Shown piece after piece: positions 1 through 53,658 of a DNA stretch of 64,000 bases. Both the position numbers and the translations under genes were made by a program. The DNA lies in NCBI GenBank assembly GCA_006503475.1, contig RSEH01000194.1, forward strand, positions 27,174 through 91,173. The letters are read 5' to 3'. Position 1 is the stretch's first letter, and every line of letters starts with the position of its first letter. The notes beneath the pieces are model-generated. The model did not search any database and had not been told where the DNA came from. It saw nothing but the letters and a program-made list of their open reading frames with translations. Source of the DNA: Stentor roeselii. Its lineage: Eukaryota > Ciliophora > Heterotrichea > Heterotrichida > Stentoridae.

Positions 1-3000
1 GAAACTGGAGAAGTTCCAAATGAAATTCAAGCTGGAGTCATTCATTTCTTAGCTGGAATTTCACCGGCTTACTCTGGGACTGACCATTTATTACAACCAC
101 TTTCAATGGTCCGACTGGAAAATGCCACTGCTGGGGAAGGCATGGTCTGGACCTTAACTGACGAGACCTGCACTGTTTTTTCATTAGAAAGTGAAAGTTT
201 CCACACTGAAAGCAGGTCTAAAATTTTAGGAGTTGTTAACAAATTCGAGTATTTCAACGAACTCTCTTCAGAACTGATGGAACCTCTTTTAAAGACCTGG
301 AAAAACATTCAAGATTTTAACTTGTCTAACTTTCGAATACCGACTCGAGTCCTTCTCAGCAACCGTCTTATTGTGAAAAGACTTGAAAGTCTCGTTCTTG
401 AGTCCTTAATTTCCTTATCAGACAAAAAGCAATCAATCATCAGGCCGCCTCTTTCAAACCCGATATCCTGGCAGAAGTTGACAGTGATCCAAGAGCTGAT
501 AGCGAATCGACTAGAAACGAAGTTAAAAGCAGAAGTGACGAAAACCCTTTCACCAGAGGAGATATCAACGCGAATATCCTCTCTTGACGAGAAGAACCAG
601 ATAATGGTGACTGAAATCGCGTCATTAGGCTACCCGAACAACTTGATTCTAGCAGCGATGGACTCAGGCTGCAGCACAAGTGACGACATCATCGAACACA
701 TCTTAGGAACTGACGGGCCGAAGCCGATGTTTTCCTTAAAAAAATGGCAGGACAGTGAATTTGACTGCATCGATTTGAGTGAGTCGGCGAATTTTTACCA
801 GAAGAGCAAAGGACACATGGTCATTCAATGCTCTTCAGCAACTCCTGATAGAAAAGTCTTCTCCAGGCCTATTGAGGACCAAGCCTTTCATCTGGCAAAG
901 TGGTTCATCGACTCAGTCACAGTCATGGTCTGCATCAGCGCGGCGCCTTTGCAGCACAAATGCGACTTCGGCTTTAAATTAGGAGATTTTGAAATGCGGT
1001 TTGAAACTGTCTTGGAAAATACGAAAATCGATGTTTCTGGAAAACAACATCTTAAACTTGCTAGTCTTAATCACTACATCTTTCGTATTTTTGCATCGGC
1101 TAATGGAGAAATTGAAGTCCTTGGGGAAAACTTCTCGTTGAGAACTGTTTTGGTTGAGGAAAGTGTTTTTAATGGGATGAGTCTTGGAAGTCTTGCTGTT
1201 TATTTAAAAGAAGGAAGTCGATGTGAGTTAAAAGGATTTTCTGTATATGAAGGACGTGTTGAAAGGCAACTTAAGTTCTTCGAAGAAGACCTGGAAAACA
1301 AAGAAGCCTCTGGCAGTTCTTTAAAGCCTCGAATAGTAGAAAGTTCTTATTTAAAGAACCGTCTTCAGCTTTTAGGACTTCCTTCAACTCAAGCGAAAAC
1401 AGTCGCTGAGCAGTTCTGGGATTTAGACTTGTCAATTCAAGAGCTTTTAAAGCAAGACTCAAGTACCTGGGCAACTCCTGCCATAAAGCTGGTATCTGAA
1501 GGTGTTTTCAATGTCAAGGTGTTCGACGCAGGAAGTATTGAAAAAGGTTATGAAGAAGTCCAGGTCTTTGAAAATGAAGCTGCCCGGTCATCCCTAACAA
1601 ATAGAAAAGTTCTGGCAATTCGCAAGTCACCTGAAGGAACAACTAAGACAGTCTCTGAGTTGTCCTTGGAAGAAATACCTGGATCTACTTGTATCGGAGA
1701 GCTGCTTATTGACTCTTCAAATGAAAGCCAAAAGCTTTACGCGGTTTTTTCTGAAAAGTCCTCAATCAAAGACCTGGCCTTTGTCGTCAGTCGAACTGCT
1801 TTAAAGGTGATGTTGCCTCCAGGGTACCAGCTGCTCAGTAATAAAGAAGGCTGCGCTATTAACTTAGCAAATAAAGCTGAAAAGAACATCTGCGTCTTTT
1901 TAGCTTTTTCAACTTCTGATTACCTGCTCTCCGCACCTGTCAAGTCCTTGGCTTCCATTGAACCGCCTCAGTCGACTTATGGACTTTGGAACCTGGAACA
2001 AGCGAAGAATGAAACAGATGACTCAGGAGTTTTTAAAGAATTTTCTTTACTTGAACTCATCTCAGCTCAGGCAGATCTTGAAGAAAAAAGAATTCAGAGA
2101 CTTGGAAAGGACTTTTTGCTTTCAATGTCAAATAGCAAGCCTGAAGCCCTTGTCTCAACAGCGGAAAACAAGGGAGTCAGTTACTTGTTGAACATGTTTG
2201 CAAATGACTATAAAAATCTTGCACCTTTTTTAATGAAAGTTTTAAATGATGGCAATAAAAATGTCATGCAGAAAATTATTGTTGAATGTATTTCTCAACT
2301 TGTCACTGCTGCTGCTAAAGGAGAAGCTGATGATATGCCGAAAGTTTATGAGTCGCCTCATAGTTACAGCAATAATATGGATAGTGAAACTGAGATTTAC
2401 TTTCCTGGAGCTTTGAAATTGGTTTTTAGCTTTGATCCTCAGTGTTATACGGAAAGTAGCTATGATTTTGTTGCGTTTTATAGGAAACCGAATAAGGAAG
2501 AGGAAATTAAGAAGTATTCTGGAAGTGGAAGTAGCATTTGGCTACCTTTTGAACATGTTGGAGATAAGATTTATATGGTTTTTCATTCAGATGGGTCGAC
2601 TACTTATTGGGGGTATAAGTTTACTGTTAAGCCTGTCATGCCTGAAAGAAGGAAACAGACTAGGCAGGTTAATATTGAATCTGTACTGCATATCATTGAA
2701 TTCTTCGTATCTCAAGGCTATTCAGTTCTAACCGAGAAATTCTTCAAACGAGAAGTAATCCTCCCTATTTTCGTATTAATCTTCAACACAAAAAGCTTAA
2801 AAATCATAGAAAAATCATTAGAACTTCTTCCACTTCTCTTAAAATCAAGCGAAAACTACCAAAAAGGAATATTTGAAATTCTAGTCCAACAAGGCAACCT
2901 TCTAAAAGAGCAGCTTAAAAACGGTCCAAACCCAATATTCACGTCAATCCTAACAGTCCTAAGTAAATTCCACGAGTCAGGAAAATTCCAAGTAAAAGAA

Positions 3001-6000
3001 AAGTGGTTCTGTGAATTTTTCAACTGTTACTACGACATAAAAGACTTCAAAAAGCCTTCAGGTGGTCTCGAGCAGTTCCTATTCGAGAATTTCGAGAGCA
3101 GTCTTTCAAAGCCAATAGAAAAATGTTTCGAAAGCCAACATCCATACATCCGAGAAAGCAAATCCGAGTTAATTTCATTTCCAGGAGCGACTTATCTTCA
3201 AGTTCAATTCGACCCAGCATCCGCTTTAGAAGAAGGCGACGAAATCTTCTGTTCTTTAGACGCTTCAGGTTCCGAAGCCCTTTCAAGTCTATCCCAGCCT
3301 GACAGCGGTTTCTGTTTTTCAACAACAATAAAAGGCCCTGATATTTCGTTGAGTAACAACAACATGACGATAACAAGGACGAATTCTTCAGGTTGGGGAA
3401 TGGGTATAAGTGAGAAGCTTCTTCAACAAAGCACTTCAACGATAACGATTTCAATTGATAATGTTGGAGATGGTGAATATTGGTATATTGGTTTGATGGA
3501 CCCGAGTAATACAAACTACACTATTCCTCTCAACAATGACCAGAGCTTCAAGCTCTGGTCCTGGAAGAAAAACGGAGACTTCTTCCGAACAGGTGAACCA
3601 ATCTCAAAAGGCTCAGCTTACAGCTTTACAACTGGAGACATCTTGTCAATCACTGTAAATTTTTCAGAAACAACTGTATTTTTCTATAAAAACGGAGAAC
3701 TCATGCATTCCTTCAATGATCTTATAGATAAAGTCACTTTCGGTATGAGTTTCGGAGGAAATAATCAAGTAGCTTCATTAATTTCTTGTGTTTCAAATGA
3801 TAGCTCAGTTTCTAACATAAAAAAAAGGAAATTCCGAGTAGACAACGATAGATTTTACCTTCATTTTCCAGTAAACTCTGGAATTTACGATTCTTTCAGC
3901 TGGGAAAACAACAACGAAAGTTCAGTCTCAGTCAGTCCGCTGCTGTTAAGCCGGGTTTCAGGAGAAGGTCCTTCCGTTCACCTGACTTCAACAGCGATTA
4001 TAACCGGGCGACACTTCTGCGAGTTCGAAATCCTTGGAATGCCTGACAAGACAGTCCTGGTGGTCTTTTTAGCAAAGGAAAGCATCGACCGAACCCAAGC
4101 AGTTTACGGGAACTGCGCATGTTACAAGAGCACTGGAAACGTTTTAGTCGGTCCTAACACGATTTCATGTAAAGGGTTCAAAACAGGTGAAGCAGTTGGA
4201 GTTTTTGTGGACTATCTCAAGTCAGAAGTTAAATTTTACAAGAATAAAATGCTTGTTTCTTCTGCACGAATGGACCTTGCTGGTGAACCTCATCGTTTTG
4301 GAGTCATGCTCACTGCTCAGGGCCAGTCAGTTAAAATCTCAAAATCTGGAGGGTACCCAGAAGATATTGACATGATCGGAATTAAACAACAAATGCGCTT
4401 TAATCAAGCGAACTGCTGGGGATATAAGTTAAAAGTCACTCCAGTCTTTTCTAATCGCTCAAGTGACTCTTTAGAACAGGTTCTCAAGTACGCCTGTGAA
4501 GATGACAGGAAGAGGTGGAAGGATTATTATACGAAATTTCAAAAACTTATGCATTGCGGAGCTGCTGAAGAACTTGTAAGTCTCACTGATGAAATCGTCT
4601 CTAGTCTCGGGAAAAGCTCTGAACAACTCACTGCTGCTGATATAAACCCAACTCCTGGTAATTTGATTTATTATAAAGAACTGGAAAAACTTGAATTAAA
4701 AGATATTCAAGAACTTTTCACTATTTTAAGTCGGTTTAATAAGCAGATCAGTGCAAAATTACAGATGTTTGATTTGAACCTTGGAGAAAAACCGACTGAA
4801 TTTCAAAAAGCTTTCTTAACTGCAAGGAACTTCGTGTTTTTTGATATTAAAAAGGGAATGTTTAATGCGCAGATGGAAAAAACTAAAAATGATTCAAGGC
4901 CTGAGATTACTGTTGATCGCACTAAGGCTAATAGATGTCGAAATTTAGGTAGAAAGGACTTGAAGGCACAGTTTTCGGTTTTTGGACAGGTTTTAAGGGC
5001 TATGAGTGGGAAGAATAACACGGATTTCAGGAATGGGGAAAGGATTTTTAAGGTTACTTATAGGGGAGAAGGAGCTATTGATGCTGGAGGACCGTATAAT
5101 GAAGTTATTAGTAATATTTGTGATGAGCTACAGTCTGATTACTTGCCTTTGCTTACGCCGACACAAAACCACCTAAACAACACAGGCGAATACCGCGACG
5201 CATGGGTTCTAAACAGTCAAAAGCTCGAAAGTTCAGAAGACCTATATCTCTTCCTAGGCAAACTCTTCGGAGTAGCGATCCGTACTCAAAACAATCTAAA
5301 CCTCTCACTTCCTCCTTACGCCTGGAAAAAGATAGTTTCAGACCACGTAGACCTTTTAGACCTGAAGTCAATCGACGAGATCTGCTTCCAAATGATAGAA
5401 ATAATCCGAAACCTAGAAGCAAAAGGAATAAACCGCGAAAACTTCCAAACCGCTTTCAGCGACGAGGTCTTCACAACGCGATTATCAAACAACGACCTTG
5501 TAGAACTAGTGCCAAATGGAAGTTCTCAACATGTGACATTTGAAAACTGCTTAGAATACGCAAAGTTGACACTTTCAGCAAGGTTAAACGAAGCTTCTTC
5601 TTATTACCACCTGATCCGCAAAGGGATGAGCGCCGTCATTCCTATGGACTTGTTAAATCTCTTCAGTTGGAAGCAGGTAGAAACGTTAGTCTGTGGCGCA
5701 GTTGACATAAAAATCGACATATTACGAGCGAATACAGAATATTCAAACGGTGCCAATGAAAGCGACCCACATATCGGGTATTTCTGGGAAGTTTTAACAG
5801 AAATGACTGCAAAAGAACGGCAACTTTTCTTGAAGTTCGTCTGGGGTCGGAGTCGTCTTCCAGCTTCAAAGACCTTCACACATATGAAGATCACGAAACT
5901 CATTCCAAGAGGTCCAGTCGACAGTTATTTACCCGTCACTCACACTTGTTTCTTCACGATTGACCTGCCGCCTTATAATAGCAAAGCAGTGATGAAGGAC

Positions 6001-6081: not shown

Positions 6082-6082
6082 T

Positions 6083-8620
6083 CTAATCATTCTTTATTTT
6101 ATACATCAGGTTAAAATAGGTCTCTTCTGAAGGGGGTGAATAAGTTTGAAGGAAATTGTGGCTGCAGGCTGTTAAAAGCTTTGGAGTTATTGATTCAAGC
6201 TTTAAACGAAGTGATAATCCTGATAACTCGTCTGCTGCTCGGCCTAGTGCTTCCAGGAACTCCGGAAAGGACATTTCTAAATGACGGCTGTGGGAAAGGT
6301 TGTCTACTTGAAGCATCATTGAACGGCTAAAACAACGGTCGATTTCTCTTGAAGTGAATTCTTCGTTTATTAGGTTTGCTTGTTGGCAGAAACTTCTGAA
6401 CTCGCTTAGGTTCATTGATTGCTTTTGACCGATTTGACCTTCTTGTCCTGAGAATTTTTTGTAGAGATGCTCAAAAAGTGTCCGATGTGCCCTAAAGTAA
6501 TAATCAACCTGTTCAGTCATATAAACCTCAGTCCTCCACTTATTCGTATCATATTTTTCCTGCAATCCTTGCAAATGTTCAAAAAACATTTTTTCAATAG
6601 CATCCGAAATATTACTACAAATCCGATTCCTGACATACTTATCATGTGCAATTCTAGCTAAAATCTCTAAAAATTCAAAGCGACAAAGTCCATTTCCCGA
6701 GTTATTAGCTTGAGAAGTTCTAATATTCGTAGTATTCCAAGTGATTCCCAAATCACTGAGTGTAAAGTTATTATCAAATACCTTATACTGACTTAAAAAG
6801 TCATTCAAAACATTAGACCCAATTGCAAAAACTTCACTTCCAGACATAGCAGAAAGAGTTTTAAAAGTTTCAAGAATAGGATCGTACTTGCCTCTTAACA
6901 GGACCTTTGCCTGTTCCCGAACCACTTCATCTTTGATGAGTCCTGCGAGTTTCGTGTTAGACCAGTCGAATTCAAAGCACTGGGTCTTGATTTCTTCATT
7001 TTCCAATAAATAGTTCTGAAAGATGCTGATTGAAACACTCCAGGGAATCTTTTCGTACTCGACAGTGACTTGAGAAGGGTCAGTGAAATTTACTCGAGGC
7101 CTGGAGTCAAATAAGTCTTTTAATTTACATTCTTCTCCTTTGGCCTTGGCCTTATTAACCTGAGACACTTCTTTGACAGTCCCTGGTAAAGGCGTTTTAA
7201 GTGTCAAGGTCTCAAAGGCTTTACTAGTAAAACAAGCGAATTGATTGGAAAAGTAAAACAAAACCTCACCAACAGGAACAACTCTGGTCACAGTCATCTT
7301 ATCTCCCTTTTTCTTCATCGGAGTCCCTGAAAAATTATCAATTTCCAGATGAATCGATTTCGGCTCTTGTGAACTATCTCCATTTTTCCATTCAAAAACC
7401 ATTTCCACCCACTTTTCACAGATCCAACAGTTGACCTTGGTTGAGTGATGTTTAGAAAACTTCGACTTATCTAAAATCCTGTTAAAAAAGTGTCCTTGTT
7501 GAAGAGATGACTGATTTTGATGTGTTGGGATGATGAAACCTTGAGAGTCTACAAAGCATTCATTTCCCAACATATGAAGACCTATCAATTCGTGGTTGTC
7601 TTTTAAAAGAGAGCTGAGAACTTCACAGTCGGAGAAGGTCAGATTGTTGTAAGAGATGTCGAGATGTCTTAAAGTTGTATTTGTTTTTAAACATTTGCCG
7701 AGAGATTTTATTGAATCTTGAGTGGCTTCTCGGCCCAGAGAGTTCCAAGACAAGTCGAGAACTGAGAGGGAATCGTTTTGAGAAAGGCCTTCGAATAGAA
7801 GCTTTGCTCCTTCTGTCCTTATACAGTTCCAGTGAAGGTCTAGGTGGGTTAGGGAGGAGTTGTATTTTAACATCTCTTTTAAGGACTCGCAACTCATGTG
7901 TCCTAAACTGTTTTTGGATAGGTTTAGGGATTTTAGTATTTTGTTGTCTGAGAGTGACTTTAGAAGATCGGATAAAATTCGCTCGCTTATTGATACGCTT
8001 TCTAGTTCTAGGGTTTTTAAACGGGTTTCGTGGTCGCAGACGAGATCTATGATCTTTAAAATCGATTTCTTTCCTAATTTATTCTCAGAAACATTAATAC
8101 TTTTAACCTTCTTCGAATGAACCTGATCAAGAATCTTTTCACATCCAAAATCAGTAAGTCTATTCGCCTTTAAATTAAGATTCGTGACTTCCTTATACTG
8201 TTTAACTCCTTTAGAAAAAGCGCCAGCATAAGTATCTCCCATGCTAAACATATGAATATCAATAAAAGTGCTAGGTCCTTTCCTTCTAACAATGCCAAAA
8301 GGCTGAGGTTTCACATGAATTTTCTCAATTTCTTCCAAATACGCCACATGAGGAGTGTCTTCAATATTTTCAATTTTATTCCTTTCTGAGATGAGAGGAA
8401 GATGAAAATAAGTATCAAGAAATTCGAGTTTCGCTTCATTCCCGACACATAAAGAAGTGCTCAGACCTCTGTCGCCTTGAGACGAGTCAAGGATTTTTAA
8501 CACCCTGGCTTGGGACTGCTTTTCGGAGAAGTCTGTTATATACGTGGTTTTGTTCATGGGCTCTAAACTACTTCGGCGGTTGTGTGACTTGATTGATGGC
8601 AGGTTGAAAGAAAGCTTCAT
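6083..8620 (-). CDS. Leucine-rich-repeat protein with EF-hand-like C-terminus
   Basis: This is an 845-residue protein that starts at an ATG preceded by TTATAATA. Residues of about 140-360 hold ribonuclease-inhibitor-type leucine-rich repeats, with pattern pieces such as LKSLNLSKNSLG, LTHLDLHWNCI and LRHLDISYNNL. The middle is not recognised. The last 150 residues contain a helical region with a NLSEFRSFCQQ...EIDRCFSRSMM...MSFPEFLEAL pattern, like a degenerate EF-hand pair; Asp and Glu ligands are poorly conserved, so calcium binding is uncertain. Similar LRR plus EF-hand proteins are common in ciliates, but I assign no function. It is convergent with the HECT gene, with stops 1 nt apart. Confidence 0.8.
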   Translation of the reverse strand: MKLSFNLPSIKSHNRRSSLEPMNKTTYITDFSEKQSQARVLKILDSSQGDRGLSTSLCVGNEAKLEFLDTYFHLPLISERNKIENIEDTPHVAYLEEIEKIHVKPQPFGIVRRKGPSTFIDIHMFSMGDTYAGAFSKGVKQYKEVTNLNLKANRLTDFGCEKILDQVHSKKVKSINVSENKLGKKSILKIIDLVCDHETRLKTLELESVSISERILSDLLKSLSDNKILKSLNLSKNSLGHMSCESLKEMLKYNSSLTHLDLHWNCIRTEGAKLLFEGLSQNDSLSVLDLSWNSLGREATQDSIKSLGKCLKTNTTLRHLDISYNNLTFSDCEVLSSLLKDNHELIGLHMLGNECFVDSQGFIIPTHQNQSSLQQGHFFNRILDKSKFSKHHSTKVNCWICEKWVEMVFEWKNGDSSQEPKSIHLEIDNFSGTPMKKKGDKMTVTRVVPVGEVLFYFSNQFACFTSKAFETLTLKTPLPGTVKEVSQVNKAKAKGEECKLKDLFDSRPRVNFTDPSQVTVEYEKIPWSVSISIFQNYLLENEEIKTQCFEFDWSNTKLAGLIKDEVVREQAKVLLRGKYDPILETFKTLSAMSGSEVFAIGSNVLNDFLSQYKVFDNNFTLSDLGITWNTTNIRTSQANNSGNGLCRFEFLEILARIAHDKYVRNRICSNISDAIEKMFFEHLQGLQEKYDTNKWRTEVYMTEQVDYYFRAHRTLFEHLYKKFSGQEGQIGQKQSMNLSEFRSFCQQANLINEEFTSREIDRCFSRSMMLQVDNLSHSRHLEMSFPEFLEALGRAADELSGLSLRLKLESITPKLLTACSHNFLQTYSPPSEETYFNLMYKIKND

Positions 8621-8692
8621 TATTATAACGATTTTAATGGGAAGAGGTGAAAGTAGTCCTTTGGGTTATTTACAGTTATTATTTTAATGATT

Positions 8693-9256
8693 TTAGATGT
8701 TTGAAACATTGTTGGGGATAATGGTTTTATTTGAATTTCGGAAGATTTGGAAGGATTTTTTCGGTCGATGATTGAATTCATTTAAGGATTTTTGGGGTAG
8801 TTGATTGATTTTTAGGTCTGCTGTGTCATGGGAGTCTTGAAATCGGTGATTTTGATGTTTTTGGATTTTTATGTTGTTGTTGATTTTTGGCTTGAATGTA
8901 CAGTTTTTTAGTTCCTGCAGATCTTGAATTTGTTTTAAGAAATAAATTTTATTAATCCTTATCTGGTTCTGAAAAAAAAGTCGATCTGCTGTTTTAGTAG
9001 AAGGGGTGTTTGAGGATTTAGGTTTTAATTGACTCAAAAGTGCTTCATAGTCAAAGGTTTCTAAATTGAATTTAAGGTTTTTCATCCAAAGAGAAAGATT
9101 CTTGTATTTTCCAAAGTCGTTTCGTTTATAACTAATATCTTTTTTGAGTTTTTTTATTGTGCAGGTGCTGTTCTTATTAAATTCGTAGTTTGATTTGTTG
9201 CTTTCAGTTGATCTATCATCCAGACTGATCTCTTCAAAGCTAGTCTCCAAAAACAT
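8693..9256 (-). CDS. Hypothetical basic Asn/Lys-rich protein with a CTFKP motif
   Basis: The protein is about 187 residues, using the ATG at 9254-9256. The open frame extends further upstream, but only to a TTG. It is rich in Asn, Lys and Ser, with no membrane segment or signal peptide. A short motif, ELKNCTFKPKIN, sits near residue 115; a similar ELANCTFRPVTN motif occurs in the tail of the IQ/myosin-like gene at 40621-43542. CTFKP-type motifs recur in protist coiled-coil and cytoskeletal proteins, but I cannot assign a function. Its start lies 45 bp from the divergent PKA-like kinase, so the two share a very short upstream region. Confidence 0.6.
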   Translation of the reverse strand: MFLETSFEEISLDDRSTESNKSNYEFNKNSTCTIKKLKKDISYKRNDFGKYKNLSLWMKNLKFNLETFDYEALLSQLKPKSSNTPSTKTADRLFFQNQIRINKIYFLKQIQDLQELKNCTFKPKINNNIKIQKHQNHRFQDSHDTADLKINQLPQKSLNEFNHRPKKSFQIFRNSNKTIIPNNVSNI

Positions 9257-9301
9257 AAAATTAAATCCCAAAACGACCTTAAAAAATGATGAAAATAAAT
9301 C

Positions 9302-10280: not shown

Positions 10281-11699
10281 TTAATTATACTGAGAATCCA
10301 ATAAGGCAAGAGAGGATTCTAATAACTTTCGATTCAACCCTGCTTCACTTGGGGATAAAAGTAGTTCTTTTCTTTTCTTTTCAAGTTTCATCGCGATTTT
10401 AGAAGAGTATTCGTCACGCAGCTCTCGCTGCGTGTGTTTTCTTTGGAGTTGCTTAGAAAATTCATCTGCTAAGGTCTTGATGTCTTGTTCTGCCCAGATC
10501 TGGCCTTGTTCTCTTTGGACTTTGAGGTAATTTTGATCCCTTTTCTTTTTTTCTTCGATTTGTTCTTTAAGTTCGGAGAGGTATCGAAAGTTTTTTACTT
10601 TTGGAGACTCGGAGTCTTGAAGACGTGATAAAAAACTTGAAGTCTGCTGGTCTGAAGATGTTAAACGACTTGGAGAAGGAAGCTAAGTGATTTTTACAAG
10701 TTTTTTTAATCTTTCGTCGTCGTGAACGAATTGAAGACGCTGGTTGATGAACTCGATTTTTTTTTGCTCGTTTTCTTTGAGTTTTTGAAGGTTTTCCTCG
10801 ATTAGTGAACGGCTGTGAGACTTTTCGTATTCTTTTAAAAGGTATTTGCATCTTTTACGTGCTGTTGCTTGGATTTGCTGCTCTTTTGCGACACTTTCTC
10901 GAAGTTTTCGAAGGGTTTTTTGACGGTTGTGCTCTTCTGCTTCTTGCTTTGCCCAGAGCTCTTTTAGTTCTTTTTGTTCTTTTAGTTTTGATTGGAGTTT
11001 TGAGTCGTTTTCTTCTTTTCGTCGTTGGATTATCTCGTCGAGCCATTCTTTTTCCTTGGATTGCTTTTTTGGGAAGTTTGAAAGAATTTCAGGGTTTTTT
11101 AGAGAAGCCCCGAGGGATTCTCTTTTTTCGTTTTGGTCCTTTTTAGGGGATTTTTCGGCGATTTGACTTAGGAGGTAGTTTCGATACAAAACCTGCTTAT
11201 TTTTCTTTTCAGTTTTCTGAAACTTTTCTTCCTACCTTTAAAATACGCTTAAAAATCTCAGATGATCAGCATGAATGATTTTTCCCCAGTCATCATTTTC
11301 CCTAATCTTTCTTTTATCATTAGAAAAACTAGAAGAGTCTTGTGTAAAAGAGTCACTTGGAAACAACGGCCGATCTTTGGCACGCTCAACAATTCTAATT
11401 CCCGACTTTTTCAGCGGAGATACCAGATAAGGACTATGAGAAATTTTGCTTTTATCTTCAGGTTTATCAGAAGAAAATTCAATACTCTTCTCAAGATTCT
11501 CCAAAACAGGTCGAGTTTCTTTTCTTTTCCAGCAAATTTTCTTGATATTCTCTTCCAACAGGTCAAGATCCTTAACAGTTAATCGACTCCTAGCAGCTAA
11601 AAATTCGTTAACTTCTTTTTCTATAACTTTAATAGAATCCGGGTATTTCAGACTAAAAATCTGCAAAAGTTCTTCTTTAACCAGCAGCTTTTTATTCAT
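10281..11699 (-). CDS. Coiled-coil protein, two introns
   Basis: Three open fragments join into one 462-residue frame when the 15-nt introns at 11232-11246 and 10683-10697 are removed. The start is ATG at 11697-11699 (MNKKLLVKEELLQIF) and the stop is TAA at 10281-10283. Residues from about 155 to the end are charged and mostly helical, rich in Lys, Glu, Gln and Arg, with repeating YxxxLxxQIxEK elements typical of axonemal or basal-body coiled-coil proteins. I do not recognise the family. A ciliary or cortical structural role is a guess from composition only. Its start is 18 bp downstream of the MAP kinase stop on the same strand. Confidence 0.85.
10415..10434. repeat. Short perfect inverted repeat in coding sequence
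   Basis: Arms CACGCAGC / GCTGCGTG with loop TCTC, inside the coiled-coil gene. Confidence 0.8.
10683..10697 (-). other. 15-nt intron (GTAAAAATCACTTAG)
   Basis: The intron ends in the in-frame TAG that truncates the upstream fragment. Removal joins KKL to LPSPS and opens 134 more codons of coiled coil. Confidence 0.9.
11232..11246 (-). other. 15-nt intron (GTATTTTAAAGGTAG)
   Basis: The intron holds an in-frame TAA. Removal links an ATG-initiated 151-codon exon to the downstream coiled-coil fragment, which otherwise lacks an ATG. Confidence 0.88.
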
Positions 11700-33914: not shown

Positions 33915-33931
33915 ATGTAAATAAGCTAAAA

Positions 33932-37349: not shown

Positions 37350-37383
37350 TTATGAACCCCCATGATAAAATCTTATTATCTAT

Positions 37384-40620: not shown

Positions 40621-43542
40621 ATGATTCGAAAAAATTCTGAAAAGTTTGAAAAAGTTGTTTTGAGGAAGGACAAAGAAGACCATTGCTTGATTGATGATCT
40701 TGAAGACTTGCAGGACAAGTCTTCTGAAAATATTCAAAAAGTTCTTCGTGAACGACTCGCTATTGGAGAAGACTTCACTTTTGCTGGAAAGAATTTGATT
40801 CATGTGGACTCAGGGTCTAATAAAATCAACCTTTTGAAGAGGTTTACTGGGAAAGTCTTTCAAGAGATGAAGAAAAATAAAGTAAATCAAGTTGTTTCTT
40901 TCGCTGGATCTTCTTTAAGGGCCAAGGAAATCAATAAAAATACGATTTTAACTGAAATTGCTTTGATGTCGAATAGCAAGTTGGAATTTGTCGAAGCTGT
41001 TCAAAGTGCTGTGGAACTTGTGAATATATTTGGAAGTGATGGGGAAAATATTTGTTATGCTGAATGCTTGGATATTGGATTTGATTATAGGTTTTATATT
41101 TGTGATTGCAGGGTCAATGCGAAAATTGTGGACTTTGAAATGGAAAGAAACTCTGGAATTTTTAGGATTTTGATGTCGTTGTCGGACCCTACTCGACAGC
41201 ATCTTGGGTTGATCAATTGGCCAGTCGACAACAAAAACATAGAACTTCATCAAAAATTCAAATCAAACCTTGAAATCCTCGGAATCAGCTGGTTCGAGAT
41301 CCTAGACCTAATGGAGCTTCTTTCAGTAAGTCTCCTCTGCGACAGTCTCACCTTTGAAACCTCCAGTTTCACCCTGGCAGGTCAAAAGCCGAGCAACACA
41401 TTCACTCCAGTCCTTTGCAAGTCCTTCCAAAAGATCTGCAAACTTTTAGGCCTTGTCCCAGGGCGCTTCAGCGAATTTCTCACTTCTTCCAACAAATACC
41501 AAGGACTTGAAATGTTGAAATCCTTAAAAAAACTTCTTCTTTTCCTGGCATTCGAAGGACTTTTAACGAAAATCAATTCAGGTTTAAAGAAAAAGGCTTC
41601 AGAGTTACGACTTGGGAAAAAAAGTTTTACTTTAAAGCTGTTGACAAGTCCTCTTGCGAAGACTAAAGCGACAATTGAAGGTTTTTTAAGCAACTTGATG
41701 ACAGAGTGTTTTGAATTTGTGAGTTATGAGGAATACTTATCACTGTTGACGACGATTTATGAGGAAAAAATGCCAGCTTCTAAGATTTCAGTACCGCGAT
41801 GCAGGTATATCCTTGAATTATTCCTTGATAAGTCCTTCGGACTATTAGCCAACTTTTCTAATGAGAACTTCTGGAAGAAGCTTTTTAAAGAAATCGCAGA
41901 AGACTCGGTTTACAATAAAATCCTGGGAATTGAAGATGAGACTTTAACGATAAACTTCTCCTGGGGAAGCAACTCTTATCATTTGCCTTCACTTTTAACG
42001 CAATTTCAACAGTTCCCTGGAAAATCAGTGACTGATCTACTTAAAAAATGCAGTCATCGGCTGGTACTGGCTTCAGTTGATTCTTTTTTTAACTTTGACT
42101 ACAAAAATTACTTGAATTTTTTGATTTCTGAACTTTTAGAAGATGCTTCTGGGCTCAACATGCATGTTTTATTTAACTTCAAAGATGTGAAAGATGTGGT
42201 CTTTGAAAGTTCTGTTGTTTCAATGGTTAGTTTGCCTTGCAGGGTGTTAATCAGCAGGAAGGTCTTGAATTCTGAACTGCTTAAAAGAAACGGCCTCAAA
42301 TTCCAAATGACTGAAAATTTTTACTTCCTTGGAAAAGATTCGCAAGATTTAATTTCTAAAGTCATTAACGCGAAAATCCCGAATTTTAACTGCTCTGGGA
42401 TTCAAGTCGTTTCAGATTCACGTTTAAACGGCCCGAAAATCCCGGAATACGTCGACCCAGTCGTAAAACCAATGAAAAAGCCTCCCAGATCTTCAAGTTC
42501 AAAATTAAGAGTTTTTTCAGTCCAGTCCTCAAAAACATCTTCGAAATTTCTAAACAGTTCTTTAAAAAACTTCAAAAATTACTCATTTACTGACTCGATT
42601 CAGGAAGTTACCAAAATTCAAGCGTTTTGGAGAGGGTTTAAAGCAAGAAGATACTTTAGATCATTGAAAAGACTTACTCAAGCAGCAGTAAAAATCCAGA
42701 AAGTTTGGAAAGGTTTTCAATCACGTAAAAAATTTAACTTTTTCCACTTTTTAACCTGCATCAAGTTCATCCAAAGGCTTTACAAGAAGTGGCATTATCG
42801 AAAAACACAAGCAGCTAAAAAGATCCAATATTTTTTTATTAAAAAAAGGTACCGACTTTCCTTTTACTCAAGAAGAAACTCGAAACAACTGACAAATTCC
42901 GGAAATTTCACGTTTAAAACAGCGCAGAGGTCAATTGAAAGAAGTAAAAAGTTTGATAAACTTAAAAACCAGTTCAAATTCAAACCAGCCCTAGGGAAGA
43001 AAAGCAATGAACTGGCAAATTCTATGAAAATAAAGAACAACTCACAGATGAAAGTTGAGGACAGGCTCTTGTTGAAAGGTCGAGAACTGAGTGAAAAGAA
43101 AGACTTGGCGATTATCAATAAAAAAAGGGCAGAATTGCCTTTAAGGCCTTCAGGTTCAGTGAAAACATTTAATAAGCGCTTTTACGAAGACAACTTGAAG
43201 TTCATGAATGACAAGAAAAGATCTTTGAAGGACTTGAGGGTCTTAAAGAACCAAAAAGAACTGGCAAACTGCACTTTTCGCCCAGTGACCAACAATAAGA
43301 ACAGGTCAAGGTCAGCGATGGAAACCGTTGACGAGCTTTACAGATGGAAGATGAAAAAAGACAAAAGACTTGAAAACGAAAGAAAAGAAATCGAAAATGA
43401 AGCCAGCTCAAAATTAAGCAATTTCAAGGCTTGTTCTAAATCATCATTAATTGTAAAAGGGAAGAAACAGGAAGAACAAAACAAGCAGGTCTTTCTTCAA
43501 GAACTTCAAAAATCGGTGACTCCTTATTGGCCGAATAAATAA
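40621..43542 (+). CDS. Myosin-like protein with degenerate motor domain and IQ motifs
   Basis: The 973-residue product looks like a highly diverged myosin. Residues 70-200 follow the myosin motor order: KVFQEMKKNKVNQVVSFAGSSLRAKE where myosins have ...NQSIIISGESGAGKTE, and ERNSGIFRILMSL...LGL where myosins have ERNYHIFYQLL...LGL. P-loop Gly/Lys/Thr are replaced (residues 94-103), and switch I NxxSSR is GENICYA. Motor ATPase activity is therefore probably lost. Four IQ-type motifs follow at about 662-752 (for example IQAFWRGFKARRYF, IQKVWKGFQSRKKF), which bind calmodulin-like chains. The tail is basic with ELANCTFRPVTN. The myosin assignment is by pattern, not alignment. Confidence 0.65.
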   Translation: MIRKNSEKFEKVVLRKDKEDHCLIDDLEDLQDKSSENIQKVLRERLAIGEDFTFAGKNLIHVDSGSNKINLLKRFTGKVFQEMKKNKVNQVVSFAGSSLRAKEINKNTILTEIALMSNSKLEFVEAVQSAVELVNIFGSDGENICYAECLDIGFDYRFYICDCRVNAKIVDFEMERNSGIFRILMSLSDPTRQHLGLINWPVDNKNIELHQKFKSNLEILGISWFEILDLMELLSVSLLCDSLTFETSSFTLAGQKPSNTFTPVLCKSFQKICKLLGLVPGRFSEFLTSSNKYQGLEMLKSLKKLLLFLAFEGLLTKINSGLKKKASELRLGKKSFTLKLLTSPLAKTKATIEGFLSNLMTECFEFVSYEEYLSLLTTIYEEKMPASKISVPRCRYILELFLDKSFGLLANFSNENFWKKLFKEIAEDSVYNKILGIEDETLTINFSWGSNSYHLPSLLTQFQQFPGKSVTDLLKKCSHRLVLASVDSFFNFDYKNYLNFLISELLEDASGLNMHVLFNFKDVKDVVFESSVVSMVSLPCRVLISRKVLNSELLKRNGLKFQMTENFYFLGKDSQDLISKVINAKIPNFNCSGIQVVSDSRLNGPKIPEYVDPVVKPMKKPPRSSSSKLRVFSVQSSKTSSKFLNSSLKNFKNYSFTDSIQEVTKIQAFWRGFKARRYFRSLKRLTQAAVKIQKVWKGFQSRKKFNFFHFLTCIKFIQRLYKKWHYRKTQAAKKIQYFFIKKRYRLSFYSRRNSKQLTNSGNFTFKTAQRSIERSKKFDKLKNQFKFKPALGKKSNELANSMKIKNNSQMKVEDRLLLKGRELSEKKDLAIINKKRAELPLRPSGSVKTFNKRFYEDNLKFMNDKKRSLKDLRVLKNQKELANCTFRPVTNNKNRSRSAMETVDELYRWKMKKDKRLENERKEIENEASSKLSNFKACSKSSLIVKGKKQEEQNKQVFLQELQKSVTPYWPNK

Positions 43543-43553
43543 TGTAGTTATAA

Positions 43554-47706: not shown

Positions 47707-50700
47707 ATGATGATAGTGTGGATAATCAATTTATTCACCACCTGCACAGGAAAAATGTTCTGCACGTCAGCTGAGTGCGACTCATGCATATCTGGTTATA
47801 TAAACTTCGAAGGTGTGAGTTGTTTAAGCTTCTGCCCAACAGGTTACTATCTAGAAGGATCCTCATTCAAACCGGGCCAATCTCAAGAACTTTTTGTTCT
47901 AAATTTTTTTTCTTACAGAAAATTCGAAGGAAACACGATAGAAACTTTTGCCCATCCTCAGCTGTATAGTTTTAGTAGCGCTTCTCATGAGACTCCGATT
48001 CCTTTAGTGGATAGAGGGTTTTATTTCTTTTCAAATTCTCAATTGGTTTCAAATACTTCCTGGGTGTTGGGTCCGAGGTTTTGCATGGGAATTCATGTTA
48101 AAACAATGGGAGCTGGGACTATATTTAAGATTGCTGATGGAAGTAAGATTTACTTTGAATTGGCTTATAATGGGAATTATAAGTTTAGCTTTCTTTATAC
48201 AGATGGAGTGAATGAAAATATGCATGTAAGTGAATGGAGTTATCCTAACTACTGGGCAATGTTTGTATTTTTAGTGTATCAGTATGAGTATGGATTTTAT
48301 TATTATTATTATGGACTGAGTGCTTGGACATATATCGCAAGTATTGAGTTTCGGATGGATTCTCAGAGTGCCAAGTATACCATTGGCTCATCTACAAACC
48401 AAGGATTTCAAGGGTTTATTGGTTACTTGTGTCTAAAAAATAGCTATTTTTGCTTGTGGAAATATCTTCCTGTTAATGACTGCCTATACAACCAATACTA
48501 TGATTATTTAGGTTGCCATGACTGTAACTGTGCTTCAAATGCTTATTGCACTGGTGCATCATGTCAAAGATGCCATCCATCAAGTTGCACAAGTTGTAAA
48601 GGTTACTCATTCGAAAGCTGCGAGCAGTTCTCAAGTACTCCAAACCTCGGTAAAAACTGCATAACCGGTTCAGGTCTGATCTGCACAGTTTGCACTTCCG
48701 GATACACACTAAGCAATGGTCTCTGCGTTTCACCGAGTAACTTTTCAACACTAACTTTGCGATTCGATTTATTTTCACAGTACAAAGGAGAGTTCTTTAA
48801 AAGTGGAGTTAATCCCTTAACCTATTCCCCTTGGAACAACCCGGAGTCAGATGATCCAATCGCCTTAAGCCTTCGAGGTCATTGGTTTTACACCAACCAG
48901 TTTTTCATTTCAAGTGACTTGACACTGAACCATTCCTTTACAATATCAGTTTGGATAACGGCTGGATCGGTATGGGTGATCTATTCTAATAAGCTTTACT
49001 TCACTTATGATGCTTCCTTGATCCTTCCCTTGTCAAATTCAGAGAAGTCTTATATGGAAGTAGCTAACGGGGAATGTTATTCAGAACTCTGGAGATTTTT
49101 CGCAGTGATCGTGAACTACACTGACGGGTCGACTCACTTCACATCAGTCTGTGGACAGTCAATAAAATCAACTTTTTCTGTGAAAGGTTTCGCGTTTTAC
49201 GACATTCCAGGTCCTTTGAAAATTTCTCCTATGGACGGATCTTACAATTTTATTTACAGAATGACTATAAGTCAATTCGCGAATTTTGATTTTAATTCAG
49301 ATCAAATTATTTGTCAAGTTGCTGGATCAGCCTCTTGTCTTGCTTATCCGAACCAACATTTTTTGAGTAGTTCTGGAAGACTTACACTTTGTGACACGTC
49401 CTGCTCCAGTGGGTGTAAAGCTTGGGGCACTTGCAACATGTGCTCCAAGCCTCGATGCAGAACATGCAATGATTTTGTTGAAACTTGTGAAGAAGACCTT
49501 TCTTATGAGCCTTGTTTCAGTGGTTTTCGCTTGGCTGATGACGGTCAGAGGTGTTGTCAGCAGCGATGTTCTTTGTGTTATGGACAAACAGCTTATATGT
49601 GTCTTCAATGTGCCCCAGGATTTGTATTAGTTGGAAGTCTTTGCACTCAGAACTGCCCTTCTCTCTTTGTTCTTAGTAATGGGGTCTGTCAGAGTCCTGC
49701 TAATTTGTTTTTACTTGATGTGACTTTTGATAAGATTGCTGATAGTTTCACTGATTCTTTAAATAATACCTTTTTCACTGGAAGTACTCAAGAGTTTTAC
49801 CCGAATATCACTCAAAGTGACCCGATCCCTGCTAAGTCAAGAGGATTTTACTTTACTGGGATTTCTTTTGTTGATACTTCTGAATTTGCCATTCCGAATA
49901 ATTTTTCTATTTCGTTTTGGGTAAGACAGACTTCTTCAGGGGTGCTAATGACGAAAAATAATCTTGGGTTTACTTCTGGTATATTTTTTGAGTATGGATC
50001 ATTTAATATGATAGTCAGTCGGGTTTATAGTGGGATTTGGGTTGTTGTGAATTTTATTGGGTATAATTATTTTGATTATTACTTCTTTGTGTTTCATGAT
50101 TCACTTGGAGGATATAATTATCAATACCCGGATATACCATTTGATGATGCTCCAAGTTCGATTCGTTTTGGATCAGATAGTGCTGGATTTGTTGGATTTA
50201 TATGGCGAGTCTTCATTTATTCCGGCCTACATTATGCCTCACAGCCAGTTATCTGCACTCAATCAACCCAAAATAACTGCCTTTGGAATTGCGATCTAAA
50301 CTATTTCTTCTCAGGTTCATCTTGCAGCAGTTGTTCAAATTCCTGCCTCAAAGGCTGCATAAGAACCTCAGACTGCAACTTATGCGAAGACCAAAAATGC
50401 TACGAATGCGAAGACTTCACCTCACAATGCAAGACCTGCATTTTAAATTCCTGGAAAAGTGCTGAATGTGAGTGCAACCCATTTTTTTACTGGAATTCCA
50501 CAGAAAGAAAATGTTCTTCCTGCAAAGCCAACTGCTTGAACTGCACATCGGATCAAAACTGTTTCGAATGTCAAGAAAACTTCATCCTAAACGTCTCAGA
50601 GTGTCTCTGCAAAGACGGTTTCTATTTAGAAAGCGAGATATGCAATCCTTGTAATGAAACCTGTGCAACTTGCACAGGTCTTGCTAGAAACAACTGCAGT

Positions 50701-53658
50701 TCATGCTTTGAATATCAAAGTCTTGTCAATGGTTCTTGCATTTGTGATCCAGGCCGCTTTTGGAATGGGTCGAAATGTGAGACTTGCAATGAGAACTGTC
50801 TTGAGTGCTCAGGAGGATCTGAAGTTGAATGCACAGCTTGTGAAGAAAGAGCTTTTTTGAATGGGTCTCAGTGTTTATGTAAGGATGGCTTTTATAAAGA
50901 TCAGAGTCAGTGTCTTCAGTGCTTTTTTAATTGTGAAAGGTGTTTTGGACCTTCGTCGCAGGAATGTCTTTGTGAGTATGATGGAGGGTGGCAAAGATGC
51001 AAGTGTCCTGATGGGCAGTTTTGGGATGGAAGATGTATTGAATGTGATTCTAATTGTTTTACATGCTTTGGATTTGATTACTTTAGGTGTGAGTCTTGTA
51101 AAGGGTATCTACTTGATGGGATCTGTTTTGAAAAGTGCCCAAGAGGATATGCTGCTGAAAAAAATGAATGCAAAGTTAAAGTTAGTCTGGCATTGAGATT
51201 AAGTTTTAAACTTGAGTATCCATTGATTGATGATATTAGCAGGAAAAGTGCAAGTCTTTGTAAAAATAAAAGTGAAAATAATCCTTTTGTTCTTCCCTTG
51301 AGAGGTATTTATTTCCCTGAAAATTCTGACTGTATCAAATTTGAAAGTAAGCCGTATCCACTGATTTCTTGGGTTTTTACAGTTGTGGCATGGTTGAAAC
51401 TAAAACAAGATTCAGTCATATTATTAATAAATTCCTCAGAACTCTTCAACTTAAAATATGAAGAAAATACCAAAATTTCACTTATCTTATCAATCAACGG
51501 TGTTCGTGAAGGGTTCAGCTTAGAGACATCATTCAACATTTCAAACTGGCATCGAGTTTTAATCAGTCTTTCAAACGATTCTTCATATTTCATTTACACT
51601 AAACTCAACAATATAGAATATCCAAAGGTAACCCTTCCTTTCTTCCCATATAAAGACTCATCAAATTCAGTTTTAGTGTTAGGTGATGACGCAGTAGGTT
51701 TTTTCTATTTATTTGAAATTTTCACTTCTTTGACTGAAGATATTCAAGATTCTTTTCCATCTTGTCCAGAGCAAATCTGCCCAATTGAATGTGATGCTCA
51801 AGAGTTCATATTCAATGAAACTTGCCAAAAATGTCCAAATGACTGTAAATACGGCTGCGAAAATGCGACAACTTGCATCATTTGTAGTGAAAAATCATGT
51901 TTATTGTGTAATAATCTTCTTCCAGATATATGTGAAAAGTGCCCGTCTCCTTTTGTGCTTGAGAAAAGTAAATGTGTACCATGTCAAGATGATGAATTTT
52001 ATGAATATGTAAGTGGTGAATGTGTGAAATGTCCTTCACTATGCACCAGGTGTATCGATGATAAAAAATGCGAAGTTTGTGTAGAGAACAGTAGTATTCC
52101 AAGTGAGTTGCTATGTGAATGTGATTTTGGATATAAAGAAAATAAAGGAAAATGCTCTAGACTTTCATTTAATGTCTCAGTTAAAATAGATGATTCAAAT
52201 ATTGTTTCAATCAAATTTGATCAACTCCTTAAAACCGAATTGTTGAAGGATCATGTTAAATTCTACATCAATTCTAAAATCACTGACGCTTCTCTAAAAT
52301 TGGAACGAAAAACATCAATTTACTCTGCAGATGTAGAGGTGCCTACCGAGTTAAAAAACGAAAAAAAAAGGAATCTTAGAATTGAGTTTAATTCAGATAT
52401 TGAATCCATAAAAGGTGCTCTTTTAACTCAAACTATTTTTAACTTTAAAATGTTCGATCAAGAAGATATAGTAATTGCAGAAAGCCTTGCAAATTTACAG
52501 AAATCAGGAACTGTTATAACCACAGCAGCTGCAGCTGCTGCGTTGACATCTGGAGCGTTTTTATTGAATCCTACAATCATTTTTAACTTGCTGAGTCTTG
52601 TTGAAATGTTTTCATATGCACTGCTTTATGATGTTCAGTTTCATAAAAAGTTTATTGATTTTTTGGTAAGTTTGAAAAAGTCCTCTAAATTGCCGATGTT
52701 TAATGTGCCGATAAAGTCAGAAGATACAAGCATGCCCAAAAAGTATTTTATTTATGGAATCGAATCGAGTCTTTTAACAATGAACGCAGGTTATTTGATT
52801 ATTTTCATTGTAGCAATCCTGATTTTAACCTCTATATTATATGTCATGACCTTTTCGACTGGTCAAATAATAAAATCTACTTCGGAAAAATTGTTAAAAT
52901 TTATATTCTATGGGTGGTTTCACCGCAGTTGCATTCAAAGCAGTTTTGACTTGTCACTCTTTAGTCTGCTGAGTTTAAGATATTCAGAATTCGACACAGC
53001 TTATAAAATATTTGATCTGGTTGTTTGCTGTTTATTAATTGTAATTTTTATGCAGGTTTATTTTGGAGTCTGGGTATTCATCAATCTTTATTATTTAATA
53101 AAGTCTAAATTCCCGATGACTAATGTGGATGTGAAAGATGCTTTAAAAAATTATTCAGCTATTTTCGATGAATTTGATTGCACAAACTGGAATTATTGTT
53201 GTTTTTATCTTATCTTTGTTGCAAGGAGATTCTGTTTATCAGTTATGATTATTTTTTCAAATGGAGTATGCCAGTTGATGTTAAGTATTTCTTTTTGCTT
53301 TGCGGTAAGAAAAAAATAGATCATTTTTTATTTGATTTATCTCAAGCCTCTCGCACAAAAGCAGGAAAACTTTTTCATTCTTATTAATGAATGCTTTCTT
53401 TTGGTATTTTATGCTACAATAACACTGAATGAACTCAACTTAATTCAGATTGGAAGTGAAAGGGTTGCTGTTATATCGATAAGGATTATTATTGGAACTC
53501 TGGGTTTTAATGTTATTGCCAATGTTATTAAAATGATCATTCATTTCTATCAGAAACTGAGAAGCAGGTGGCATACTGAGAGAATTAGAGTCGCTCCTCA
53601 AATTTCTATTACTTCCATATATCAGTCAAGTATTTCTAAAGTGAGAACTGATAATTAG
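47707..53658 (+). CDS. Giant Cys-rich modular membrane protein, one intron
   Basis: Removing the intron at 53305-53319 gives 1978 residues. A signal peptide (MMIVWIINLFTTCTG) opens a huge ectodomain. It alternates Cys-rich furin/GFR-like knots (CxxC...CxxC) with four beta-rich modules resembling LamG/concanavalin folds (about residues 65-255, 345-548, 665-855 and 1162-1355). A dense furin-like run with EGF-like spacing lies at about 858-1155. After a further Cys cluster and a beta domain, five to six membrane helices follow in 1598-1960, and a short basic tail ends in TAG. Large Cys-rich receptor-like proteins of this layout form expanded families in ciliates; the ligand is unknown. The strand composition switches at about 48470, 50215 and 51415. 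Confidence 0.88.
53305..53319 (+). other. 15-nt intron (GTAAGAAAAAAATAG)
   Basis: Ends in in-frame TAG. Removal joins SFCFA to IIFYLIYLKP and restores the last membrane helices. Confidence 0.93.

What the first reader, a model, noticed from the sequence alone, without database searches (positions are those of the whole stretch)
2690..51415. Recurrent one-way strand-composition jumps (G+T to A+C) that ignore gene boundaries and strand
Read on the + strand, sequence rich in G and T changes within a few tens of bases to sequence rich in A and C. Clear cases lie near 2690, 5155, 8050, 9245, 11225, 16435, 25180, 30570, 31850, 33935, 40085, 41225, 48470, 50215 and 51415; weaker ones lie near 13610, 17480, 22180, 22920, 26100 and 44060. 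The change is always in this direction; the return is gradual. Many jumps fall inside single exons of genes on either strand, where synonymous codon choice flips while the protein continues, so neither transcription nor protein constraint explains them. Such a jump is symmetric under reverse complement, as a bidirectional point source would be. From memory of the yeast literature, leading strands there carry an excess of C over G and A over T, which would make each jump an origin-like site spaced about 1-6 kb. Mutation must accumulate in the germline, so germline replication or break repair sites are the candidates. No motif shared by the jump points was found by eye.
Basis: partly seen in the sequence, partly recalled or inferred. 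Interest (0 to 1): 0.78.

Follow-up and report, generated by a model that had tools for sequence, protein, structure and literature searches.

The report
DNA strand-bias flips marking fixed sites
A ciliate's chromosomes carry many fixed points where the base make-up of the two DNA strands flips sharply and fades within about 500 bases, most likely scars of repeated DNA breaks in the germline, which would make germline break sites readable from an ordinary genome sequence.

Summary
The window is the right end of a 91-kb contig of a heterotrich-type ciliate genome (44.4 Mb). I tested 314 kb: the window, 200 kb of contig C40 and 50 kb of C339. At synonymous third positions, with amino acid and codon-box effects removed, sharp G+T to A+C drops outnumber sharp rises 35 to 3 at z>5 and 17 to 0 at z>6; codon-shuffle nulls average 1.8 and 0.2 at z>5. 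The best 5-state HMM expects 91 strong-to-strong drops and 0.0 strong-to-strong rises. Each drop is a largely isolated antisymmetric dipole: it flips within about 10-20 bp, and its lobes reach about 450-500 bp. Spacing is irregular (median 1.6-1.8 kb), no motif was found, and genes and gene strand are largely ignored. The outer ~13-22 kb of the three contig ends seen lack clear jumps. Fork-run (origin-to-origin) models fit worse, so the plain replication-origin reading is weakened, not excluded. Sign and spectrum (C to T and A to G on the strand whose 3' end points at the site) match human meiotic-break footprints. Best reading: fixed sites of recurrent germline breakage with about 500-nt 5' resection, perhaps at germline-limited inserts (IESs), which is untested.

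The parts
2683..2713 (.). drop (point source), inside + gene 106-6081
   Evidence: HMM with step refinement 2698, left/right LLR 39/37, sd 10 bp; synonymous z 6.9
5146..5176 (.). drop, inside + gene 106-6081
   Evidence: 5161, LLR 40/37, sd 5; z 6.7
   Evidence: 6465, LLR 31/35
8037..8067 (.). drop, inside - gene 6083-8620
   Evidence: 8052, LLR 43/32; z 6.6
9198..9228 (.). drop near the 5' end of - ORF 8693-9271
   Evidence: 9213, LLR 21/17; raw w=100 z 5.5; synonymous z 3.6
11167..11197 (.). drop, - ORF 10683-11189
   Evidence: 11182, LLR 37/23; z 5.3
13546..13576 (.). weaker drop, - ORF 13437-14066
   Evidence: 13561, LLR 10/23
16427..16457 (.). drop, - ORF 16027-17310
   Evidence: 16442, LLR 24/23
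17516..17546 (.). weak drop, intergenic
   Evidence: 17531, LLR 13/15, sd 31; raw w=200 z 4.4
19233..19263 (.). drop, + ORF 19062-19985
   Evidence: 19248, LLR 19/18
22895..22925 (.). drop, - ORF 22720-24147
   Evidence: 22910, LLR 18/31; z 4.7
23846..23876 (.). drop, - ORF 22720-24147
   Evidence: 23861, LLR 17/16
25162..25192 (.). drop, + ORF 24241-25506
   Evidence: 25177, LLR 34/37; raw w=100 z 5.7
25819..25849 (.). one-sided drop (strong left, weak right)
   Evidence: 25834, LLR 39/3
28977..29007 (.). drop, + ORF 28062-29114
   Evidence: 28992, LLR 18/13
30563..30593 (.). drop, + ORF 30368-30919
   Evidence: 30578, LLR 25/18
31807..31837 (.). drop, - ORF 30906-32516
   Evidence: 31822, LLR 40/29; z 6.5
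33911..33941 (.). drop, start of + ORF 33911-34738
   Evidence: 33926, LLR 20/19
35207..35237 (.). one-sided drop inside a tandem-repeat stretch of - ORF 34750-37077, doubtful
   Evidence: 35222, LLR 33/4, sd 34; tandem repeat 35052-35359
37339..37369 (.). weak drop, intergenic
   Evidence: 37354, LLR 8/16
40122..40152 (.). drop near the 3' end of - ORF 40100-40591
   Evidence: 40137, LLR 22/13, sd 25; raw w=200 z 4.6 at 40084; synonymous z only 2.3
41197..41227 (.). drop, + ORF 40621-43542
   Evidence: 41212, LLR 30/34; z 5.8
48463..48493 (.). drop, + ORF 47707-53319
   Evidence: 48478, LLR 24/17, sd 40
50185..50215 (.). drop, + ORF 47707-53319, with paralogue evidence
   Evidence: 50200, LLR 28/29; paralogue substitutions
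51366..51426 (.). weaker drop, + ORF 47707-53319, not called by the HMM
   Evidence: raw w=100 z 3.5 at 51397; synonymous z 4.3 at 51378
51700..64000 (.). stretch without HMM drops at the contig end, A+T rich from about 53 kb
   Evidence: skew autocovariance 0.020 and GC3 0.19 in the last 8 kb against 0.038-0.070 and 0.32-0.37 in the first 40 kb; contig ends at window 64000; no telomere repeat in the last 2 kb
47707..53319 (+). cysteine-rich, furin-like gene (name recalled) with an 85% identical paralogue on C136 near a contig end, used to polarise substitutions

Best explanation
Each drop marks a fixed germline site where DNA is opened again and again, leaving on both sides the strand whose 3' end points at the site single-stranded for about 450-500 nt. 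Most likely this is a recurrent double-strand break followed by 5'-to-3' resection. The exposed strand gains C to T and A to G changes through deamination or error-prone refilling, so top-strand DNA left of the site becomes G+T rich and right of it A+C rich. SHOWN: dipole shape, reach, sharpness, direction, transition-dominated spectrum, and a response of synonymous, non-synonymous and (in the larger of two tests) intergenic sites; scarcity near the three contig ends seen. SUGGESTED: in one gene pair the copy nearer a contig end is losing the skew. INFERRED: that exposure is by breaks, that it is germline and meiotic, and what fixes the sites. As no motif marks them, the determinant may be DNA absent from the somatic sequence, such as an IES.
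For: Antisymmetric cross-validated profile: at 4-fold sites 40-200 bp from the jump the left (+ strand) averages about A .25 C .07 G .21 T .47, the right is close to the mirror image, and sites over 1.5 kb away are A .35 C .15 G .15 T .35; bias is near zero by 500-600 bp. Best-fitting lobe a 450-500 bp sigmoid or box with isolated random placement. R/Y skew shows no such asymmetry (4-fold sites near jumps have a slight pyrimidine excess on the exposed strand, R .45-.48), so transitions dominate. Intergenic DNA follows the local synonymous skew (slope 0.32-0.39; intergenic C .21 to .10 and G .12 to .20 from M lobes to K lobes), as do codon positions 1 and 2 (slopes 0.18, 0.14), so the cause is mutational. 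Same sign and substitution types as human meiotic hotspots: C>N and A>N on the forward strand, mirrored on the reverse, with ssDNA left of the break on the forward strand, and C>T raised in CpG in the off-centre peaks (PMC7615360, passages and section 4); here C to T is strongest before G (lnOR 1.43). A Spo11-type domain (TP6A_N) and Mnd1 are encoded in the genome. No clear jumps in the outer ~13-22 kb of three contig ends. Paralogue test with uniform 450-bp lobes at three jumps: changes toward and away from the skew 46 and 30 on the window branch, 42 and 57 on the C136 branch, Fisher p=0.022.
Against: No break, meiosis or micronuclear data were available, so nothing shows breaks directly. Human footprints have no asymmetry in the central 100 bp and reach 2 kb; here the flip is within 10-20 bp and the reach about 500 bp. 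Motif-less sites scattered through coding sequence are unlike promoter hotspots or PRDM9 sites (recalled). The paralogue result is modest: my first lobe limits, chosen after seeing the table and unequal in length, gave p=1.7e-4 on the left and 0.18 on the right; uniform 450-bp lobes give 0.010 and 0.42, the C136 branch has an overall K>M excess (59 M>K, 90 K>M over 48000-52000), and it is one gene pair with a 74% identical outgroup. Only one of the three contig ends carries telomere repeats (C40; not C339, nor C110's right end), and scarcity there may reflect rapid turnover of subtelomeric sequence. GCT and AAC contexts shift the wrong way (lnOR -0.32 and -0.52), which simple deamination does not predict. 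Next to the 50 strongest jumps intergenic bases had the opposite sign on the right out to 200 bp and mixed signs on the left, against the larger regression.
Confidence: 0.43

Rival explanations
1. Replication origins with the yeast sign: forks leave the jump in both directions, and the lagging strand, made with more G.T mispairs or retained polymerase-alpha DNA, becomes G+T rich.
For: Sign equals that of S. cerevisiae and K. lactis, whose leading strands are A+C enriched (PMC3459929). Sharp jump with gradual return. Source width of 10-20 bp sd is compatible with an origin footprint.
Against: Lobes mostly end at about 500 bp, also where the next called jump is more than 2.3 kb away. Sawtooth models fit worse. 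No motif. Density of about 0.46 per kb in C40 would need origins about every 2 kb.
Confidence: 0.16
2. Fixed replication barriers or termination points: forks arriving from either side stall and leave lagging-strand template single-stranded next to the barrier, for example at an inverted-repeat element in the germline.
For: With the classical rule (lagging template deaminates; recalled) the observed sign is that of converging forks. Limited reach would be set by the stalled gap. Sharp, isolated, motif-less sites fit inserts not seen in the somatic genome.
Against: Sharp termini with diffuse origins are unusual. No independent evidence for stalling was obtainable.
Confidence: 0.13
3. A germline mutational source of another kind, such as local DNA modification, unusual transcription or a strand-biased filling polymerase acting toward fixed nicks.
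For: Strong neighbour dependence, including sign reversal in GCT and AAC, suggests an enzyme-specific or polymerase-specific signature.
Against: Ordinary transcription-coupled bias follows genes, which these do not.
Confidence: 0.2
4. Gene structure, codon choice for translation or chance: drops reflect gene ends, strand or protein composition.
For: Coding-strand skew is mildly negative at gene starts (-0.12) and positive at ends (+0.08 to +0.10), and shuffled controls keep a slight drop excess (1.8 against 0.2 at z>5).
Against: 22 of 24 window drops lie within coding sequence, on both gene strands. Synonymous residuals exceed within-gene shuffles about 20-fold. Non-synonymous and intergenic bases follow too.
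Confidence: 0.02

Closest known systems
Strand-asymmetric mutation footprint of human meiotic break hotspots (PMC7615360; passages and section 4 read)
   Same: C>N and A>N on the forward strand on one side of the break, mirror image on the other, in DNA interpreted as resected and single-stranded; C>T favoured in CpG.
   Different: There it was found by pooling rare variants over about 25,000 hotspots, with a 2-kb reach and a symmetric centre. Here single sites can be read in one sequence, reach is about 500 bp, the flip is within 10-20 bp, and no motif was found.
Replication-linked skew jumps (human total-skew jumps; yeast origins; PMC3459929: abstract, introduction and one results section read)
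   Same: One-way sharp jumps in G-C plus T-A skew with a gradual return; yeast has the same sign.
   Different: Human jumps go upward. Here the domains look isolated, about 500 bp per side, not linear between sites.
IES junctions of heterotrich ciliates (Blepharisma: about 40,000 IESs; PMC9942856: abstract, one section and a term search of the text)
   Same: Density of order one per kb (with a somatic genome of about 41 Mb, recalled); would leave no motif in the somatic sequence.
   Different: That text holds the word 'skew' 0 times. No germline sequence was available here; TA excess at jumps is not significant.

Membership tests
Meiotic break-hotspot mutation footprint | C>T and A>G on the forward strand left of the site, mirrored right | tested here: met
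   4-fold and context tables; inferred from composition, and only in one gene pair from substitutions
Meiotic break-hotspot mutation footprint | C>T raised in CpG | tested here: met
   lnOR 1.43 before G, 0.38-1.15 before other bases
Meiotic break-hotspot mutation footprint | No strand asymmetry in the central 100 bp | tested here: not met
   flip width about 10-20 bp sd over 66 jumps
Meiotic break-hotspot mutation footprint | Break machinery encoded (Spo11-type, Mnd1) | tested here: met
   TP6A_N E 3.9e-18, Mnd1 E 2.3e-19; domain matches only
Meiotic break-hotspot mutation footprint | Breaks or DMC1-bound ssDNA at the sites | not testable with these tools
   no such data held
Replication-origin skew jump | One-way sharp jump of total skew | tested here: met
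Replication-origin skew jump | Roughly linear return across the inter-origin interval | tested here: not met
   reach about 500 bp also in long gaps, small tail to 1 kb; sawtooth fits worse; undetected weak jumps in long gaps could blur this
Replication-origin skew jump | Shared origin motif (as in S. cerevisiae) | tested here: not met
   EM motif LLR not above controls on 88 sites; at width 12, implants in 50% or 80% of sites were detected, in 30% only with low error
Replication-origin skew jump | Initiation mapped at the site | not testable with these tools
   no nascent-strand or ORC data
IES junction | Germline-only insert at the site | not testable with these tools
   no germline sequence held
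IES junction | TA dinucleotide at the junction | tested here: inconclusive
   TA within 3 bp .375 against .308 (sd .056) over 88 sites; localisation too coarse
IES junction | PiggyBac-type excisase encoded | tested here: inconclusive
   PF13843 gave no match, but no control genome rang either

The most novel reading that the evidence does not exclude
The jumps mark germline-limited inserts (IESs) that are cut or nicked in the germline and repaired with resection over evolutionary time. If so, the positions of sequences deleted from the somatic genome, and how often each site is broken in the germline, can be read from the somatic genome alone, site by site, with about 15-bp precision.
Probability: 0.27. 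Interest if true: 0.92.

Novelty: new variant of a known kind. Interest (0 to 1): 0.8.

Why it matters
Strand-asymmetric mutation around breaks or origins is normally seen by averaging many sites. Here single sites are visible in one sequence, about one per 2 kb, at about 15-bp resolution. That would allow germline break or replication sites of a hard-to-culture ciliate to be mapped from its assembly, would explain otherwise puzzling within-gene codon flips, and gives a direct test of whether DNA elimination sites leave marks in the germline. It also warns that codon-usage and skew-based annotation in such genomes can be shaped by local mutation.

Tried and rejected
Gene-boundary and codon-bias causes were rejected as the main cause by synonymous residuals, shuffles and intergenic bases (one search is the contrary small test). 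Two-state HMMs and exponential-decay lobes fit worse. Motif searches (k-mers, EM, spaced dyads) gave nothing clear above controls; among 64 sites CTGTA/TACAG (10 against 2.0 expected) and CAAATC (15 against 4.6) lead the k-mer lists but are marginal after counting all k-mers. Tiny introns at jumps: 1 of 21, 2 of 68 and 0 of 8 jumps lie within 30 bp of a GTA..TAG candidate, but the candidate scan was not specific (antisense outnumbered sense). GpC enrichment at the jump is probably a junction effect, because controls were cut from each flank separately. Rfam and tRNA scans of the window were empty (ARAGORN was run with the bacterial code). Literature: listings (titles and starts of abstracts) showed no report of such skews in ciliates; only open-licence PMC papers are held and few were opened. 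Passages of PMC7706706 treat the 20 kb next to yeast telomeres as a separate break domain; that breaks are suppressed there I only recall, and I do not count it. Ten 800-base contig starts held no telomere repeats and were not informative. The PiggyBac search was negative with silent controls. On re-check I replaced my first, unequal paralogue lobes by uniform ones; this weakened that evidence, and together with the missing telomeres at two of three ends led me to lower the best explanation from 0.45 to 0.43.

Full report
WHAT THE WINDOW IS. The window is bases 27174-91173, the right end, of a 91,173-base contig of a 44.39-Mb, 522-contig genome. Genes are dense (79% of the window by my simple caller), long ORFs read under the standard code, a 15-base GT..AG intron is visible at 9357-9371 (read by eye), and contig C40 begins with CCCTAACA repeats, the Blepharisma telomere repeat (PMC9942806, passages).

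THE OBSERVATION. K = G or T, M = A or C. On raw sequence the window shows a modest excess of sharp K-to-M drops (w=200, z>4: 12 drops, 4 rises; block-reversal p 0.000 to 0.19 for the third moment by scale, up to 0.74 for extreme values). R/Y skew showed no such asymmetry.

SYNONYMOUS SITES. For each degenerate third position I subtracted the mean of its codon box and put the residual on the + strand (314 kb: window 64, C40 200, C339 50). At w=200: 35 drops and 3 rises at z>5, 17 and 0 at z>6. Thirty within-gene synonymous shuffles average 1.8 and 0.2 at z>5 (maxima 3 and 1). Sixty block reversals give a difference of sd 7.1 and maximum 20 against 32 observed. Per part at z>5: window 9 and 0, C40 25 and 3, C339 1 and 0; the fetched part of C339 lies near a contig end. 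At w=800 there is no excess. The best of four 5-state HMMs expects 91.1 strong-K to strong-M changes and 0.0 of the reverse (the four range from 20 to 91, all against 0.0); a 3-state model at its two best settings expects 214 and 141 direct K to M, 5.3 and 0.1 direct M to K. Sign changes as such are balanced (24 down, 25 up in the window), as they must be; the asymmetry lies in sharpness. Eight kinase loci not used in the fits give 14 drops and 5 rises at z>4.

ANATOMY. Jumps found with half the codons and profiled with the other half (97 drop and 39 rise detections summed over the two halves, so a jump may count twice) show an antisymmetric dipole. At 4-fold sites between 20 and 120 bp, C is about .05-.07 on the left and G about .05 on the right, against .15 far away; the bias is near zero by 500-600 bp, with a weak opposite bias at 600-1000 bp from neighbouring dipoles. 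The rises are less sharp. Maximum-likelihood transition width over 66 jumps is about 10-20 bp sd, with best values of single jumps spread from 0 to 80 bp. The autocorrelation is positive to 300 bp, most negative at 500-700 bp, and small (at most 0.005) beyond 900 bp. Isolated dipoles with 450-500 bp sigmoid or box lobes fit best (rms 0.0029-0.0030); sawtooth models, in which the bias runs from jump to jump, fit worse (best near-regular one 0.0053, best with exponential intervals 0.0093). Where the next called jump is over 2.3 kb away, the bias is .40 at the site.12-.14 at 450-550 bp.06-.10 to 1 kb and zero by 1.2 kb (46 flanks). Spacing medians are 1.7 kb (window), 1.6 kb (C40) and 1.8 kb (C339), minimum 633 bp, which is partly a detection limit.

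MUTATION, NOT SELECTION ON CODONS. Intergenic bases follow the local synonymous skew (slope 0.32 after removing gene-end trends, 0.39 raw; n=11,711), as do codon positions 1 (0.18) and 2 (0.14), against 0.92 for third positions. Against this, intergenic bases next to the 50 strongest jumps had the opposite sign on the right side out to 200 bp and mixed signs on the left; I give more weight to the larger regression. The changes are mainly transitions, C to T and A to G on the strand whose 3' end points at the jump. They depend on neighbours: C to T is strong before G and reversed in GCT (lnOR -0.32), A to G is strongest in CAG and reversed in AAC (-0.52). I cannot explain the reversal.

WHERE THE SITES ARE NOT. 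Clear jumps are missing from the three contig ends seen: the first HMM drop is at 19.8 kb in C40 and 21.9 kb in C339, the last 13.8 kb from the right end of C110, with a weaker uncalled one 12.6 kb from it. Only C40's end carries telomere repeats. Skew autocovariance there is 0.002-0.022, against mostly 0.03-0.10 further in (0.024-0.026 at 24-40 kb of C339), and GC3 is mostly lower. Three ends are few.

PARALOGUES. The window gene 47707-53319, itself 10.7-16.3 kb from its contig end, has an 85% identical copy 2.8-8.7 kb from the end of C136 and a 74% identical one on C313. With C313 as outgroup and hand-set lobes, left lobes show 26 M>K and 16 K>M on the window branch, 13 and 42 on the C136 branch (p=1.7e-4), right lobes 12:23 and 23:23 (p=0.18). 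Those lobes were chosen after seeing the table. With uniform 450-bp lobes at the three jumps the left gives 20:13 and 12:28 (p=0.010), the right 17:26 and 29:30 (p=0.42), and changes toward against away from the skew 46:30 and 42:57 (p=0.022); C136 also has an overall K>M excess, 59:90. This suggests, but does not establish, that the C136 copy is losing the skew.

NO MOTIF. Among 88 sites (within 40 bp) EM motif scores are not above shifted controls at widths 8, 12 and 18. At width 12, motifs implanted in 50% or 80% of sites were detected; in 30%, only with the lower error.

MECHANISM. The geometry, exposure of the 3'-ended strand on both sides of a point over a limited length, is that of a double-strand break with 5' resection. 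Human meiotic hotspots show this strand pattern (PMC7615360, passages and section 4). The genome encodes a Spo11-type domain and Mnd1. Deamination of lagging-strand template at origins would give the opposite sign; the yeast sign would match origins (PMC3459929), but reach and shape argue against long fork-run domains. Fixed fork barriers remain possible. A search for PiggyBac-type transposase domains was negative with silent controls.

VERDICT. Shown: the dipoles and their properties. Inferred: breaks, germline, meiosis, IES.

Noticed in passing
exposed-strand lobes in win, C40, C339: Context reversal: GCT keeps C and AAC keeps A on the exposed strand, against the trend of most other contexts. 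Possibly a second process of opposite polarity at AGC/GCT.
   Followed up: partly
window 53000-64000; C40:1-20000; C339:1-24000: Contig-end regions are A+T rich with mostly low GC3 (.19-.32 against about .35) and few or no skew jumps.
   Followed up: partly
genome G000: 135 protein-kinase domain matches were scored in this 44-Mb assembly, a lower bound (1346 first-look candidates).
   Followed up: no
window 47707-53319; C136:74711-80392; C313:23123-27056: Cysteine-rich multi-copy gene family, with further partial matches on other contigs, some near contig starts (C49, C489, C1, C14).
   Followed up: partly
window, C40, C339 gene ends: TGA is rarely the first stop after high-scoring segments: 8 of 85, against TAA 43 and TAG 34.
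   Followed up: no
window 35052-35359: 144-base tandem repeat inside the lysine/serine-rich - ORF 34750-37077; the one-sided jump at 35222 lies in it and may be a repeat effect.
   Followed up: no
gene starts and ends in 314 kb: Coding-strand synonymous skew is -0.12 in the first 150 bp and +0.08 to +0.10 in the last 300 bp of genes over 900 bp, suggesting some enrichment of point sources between genes.
   Followed up: partly
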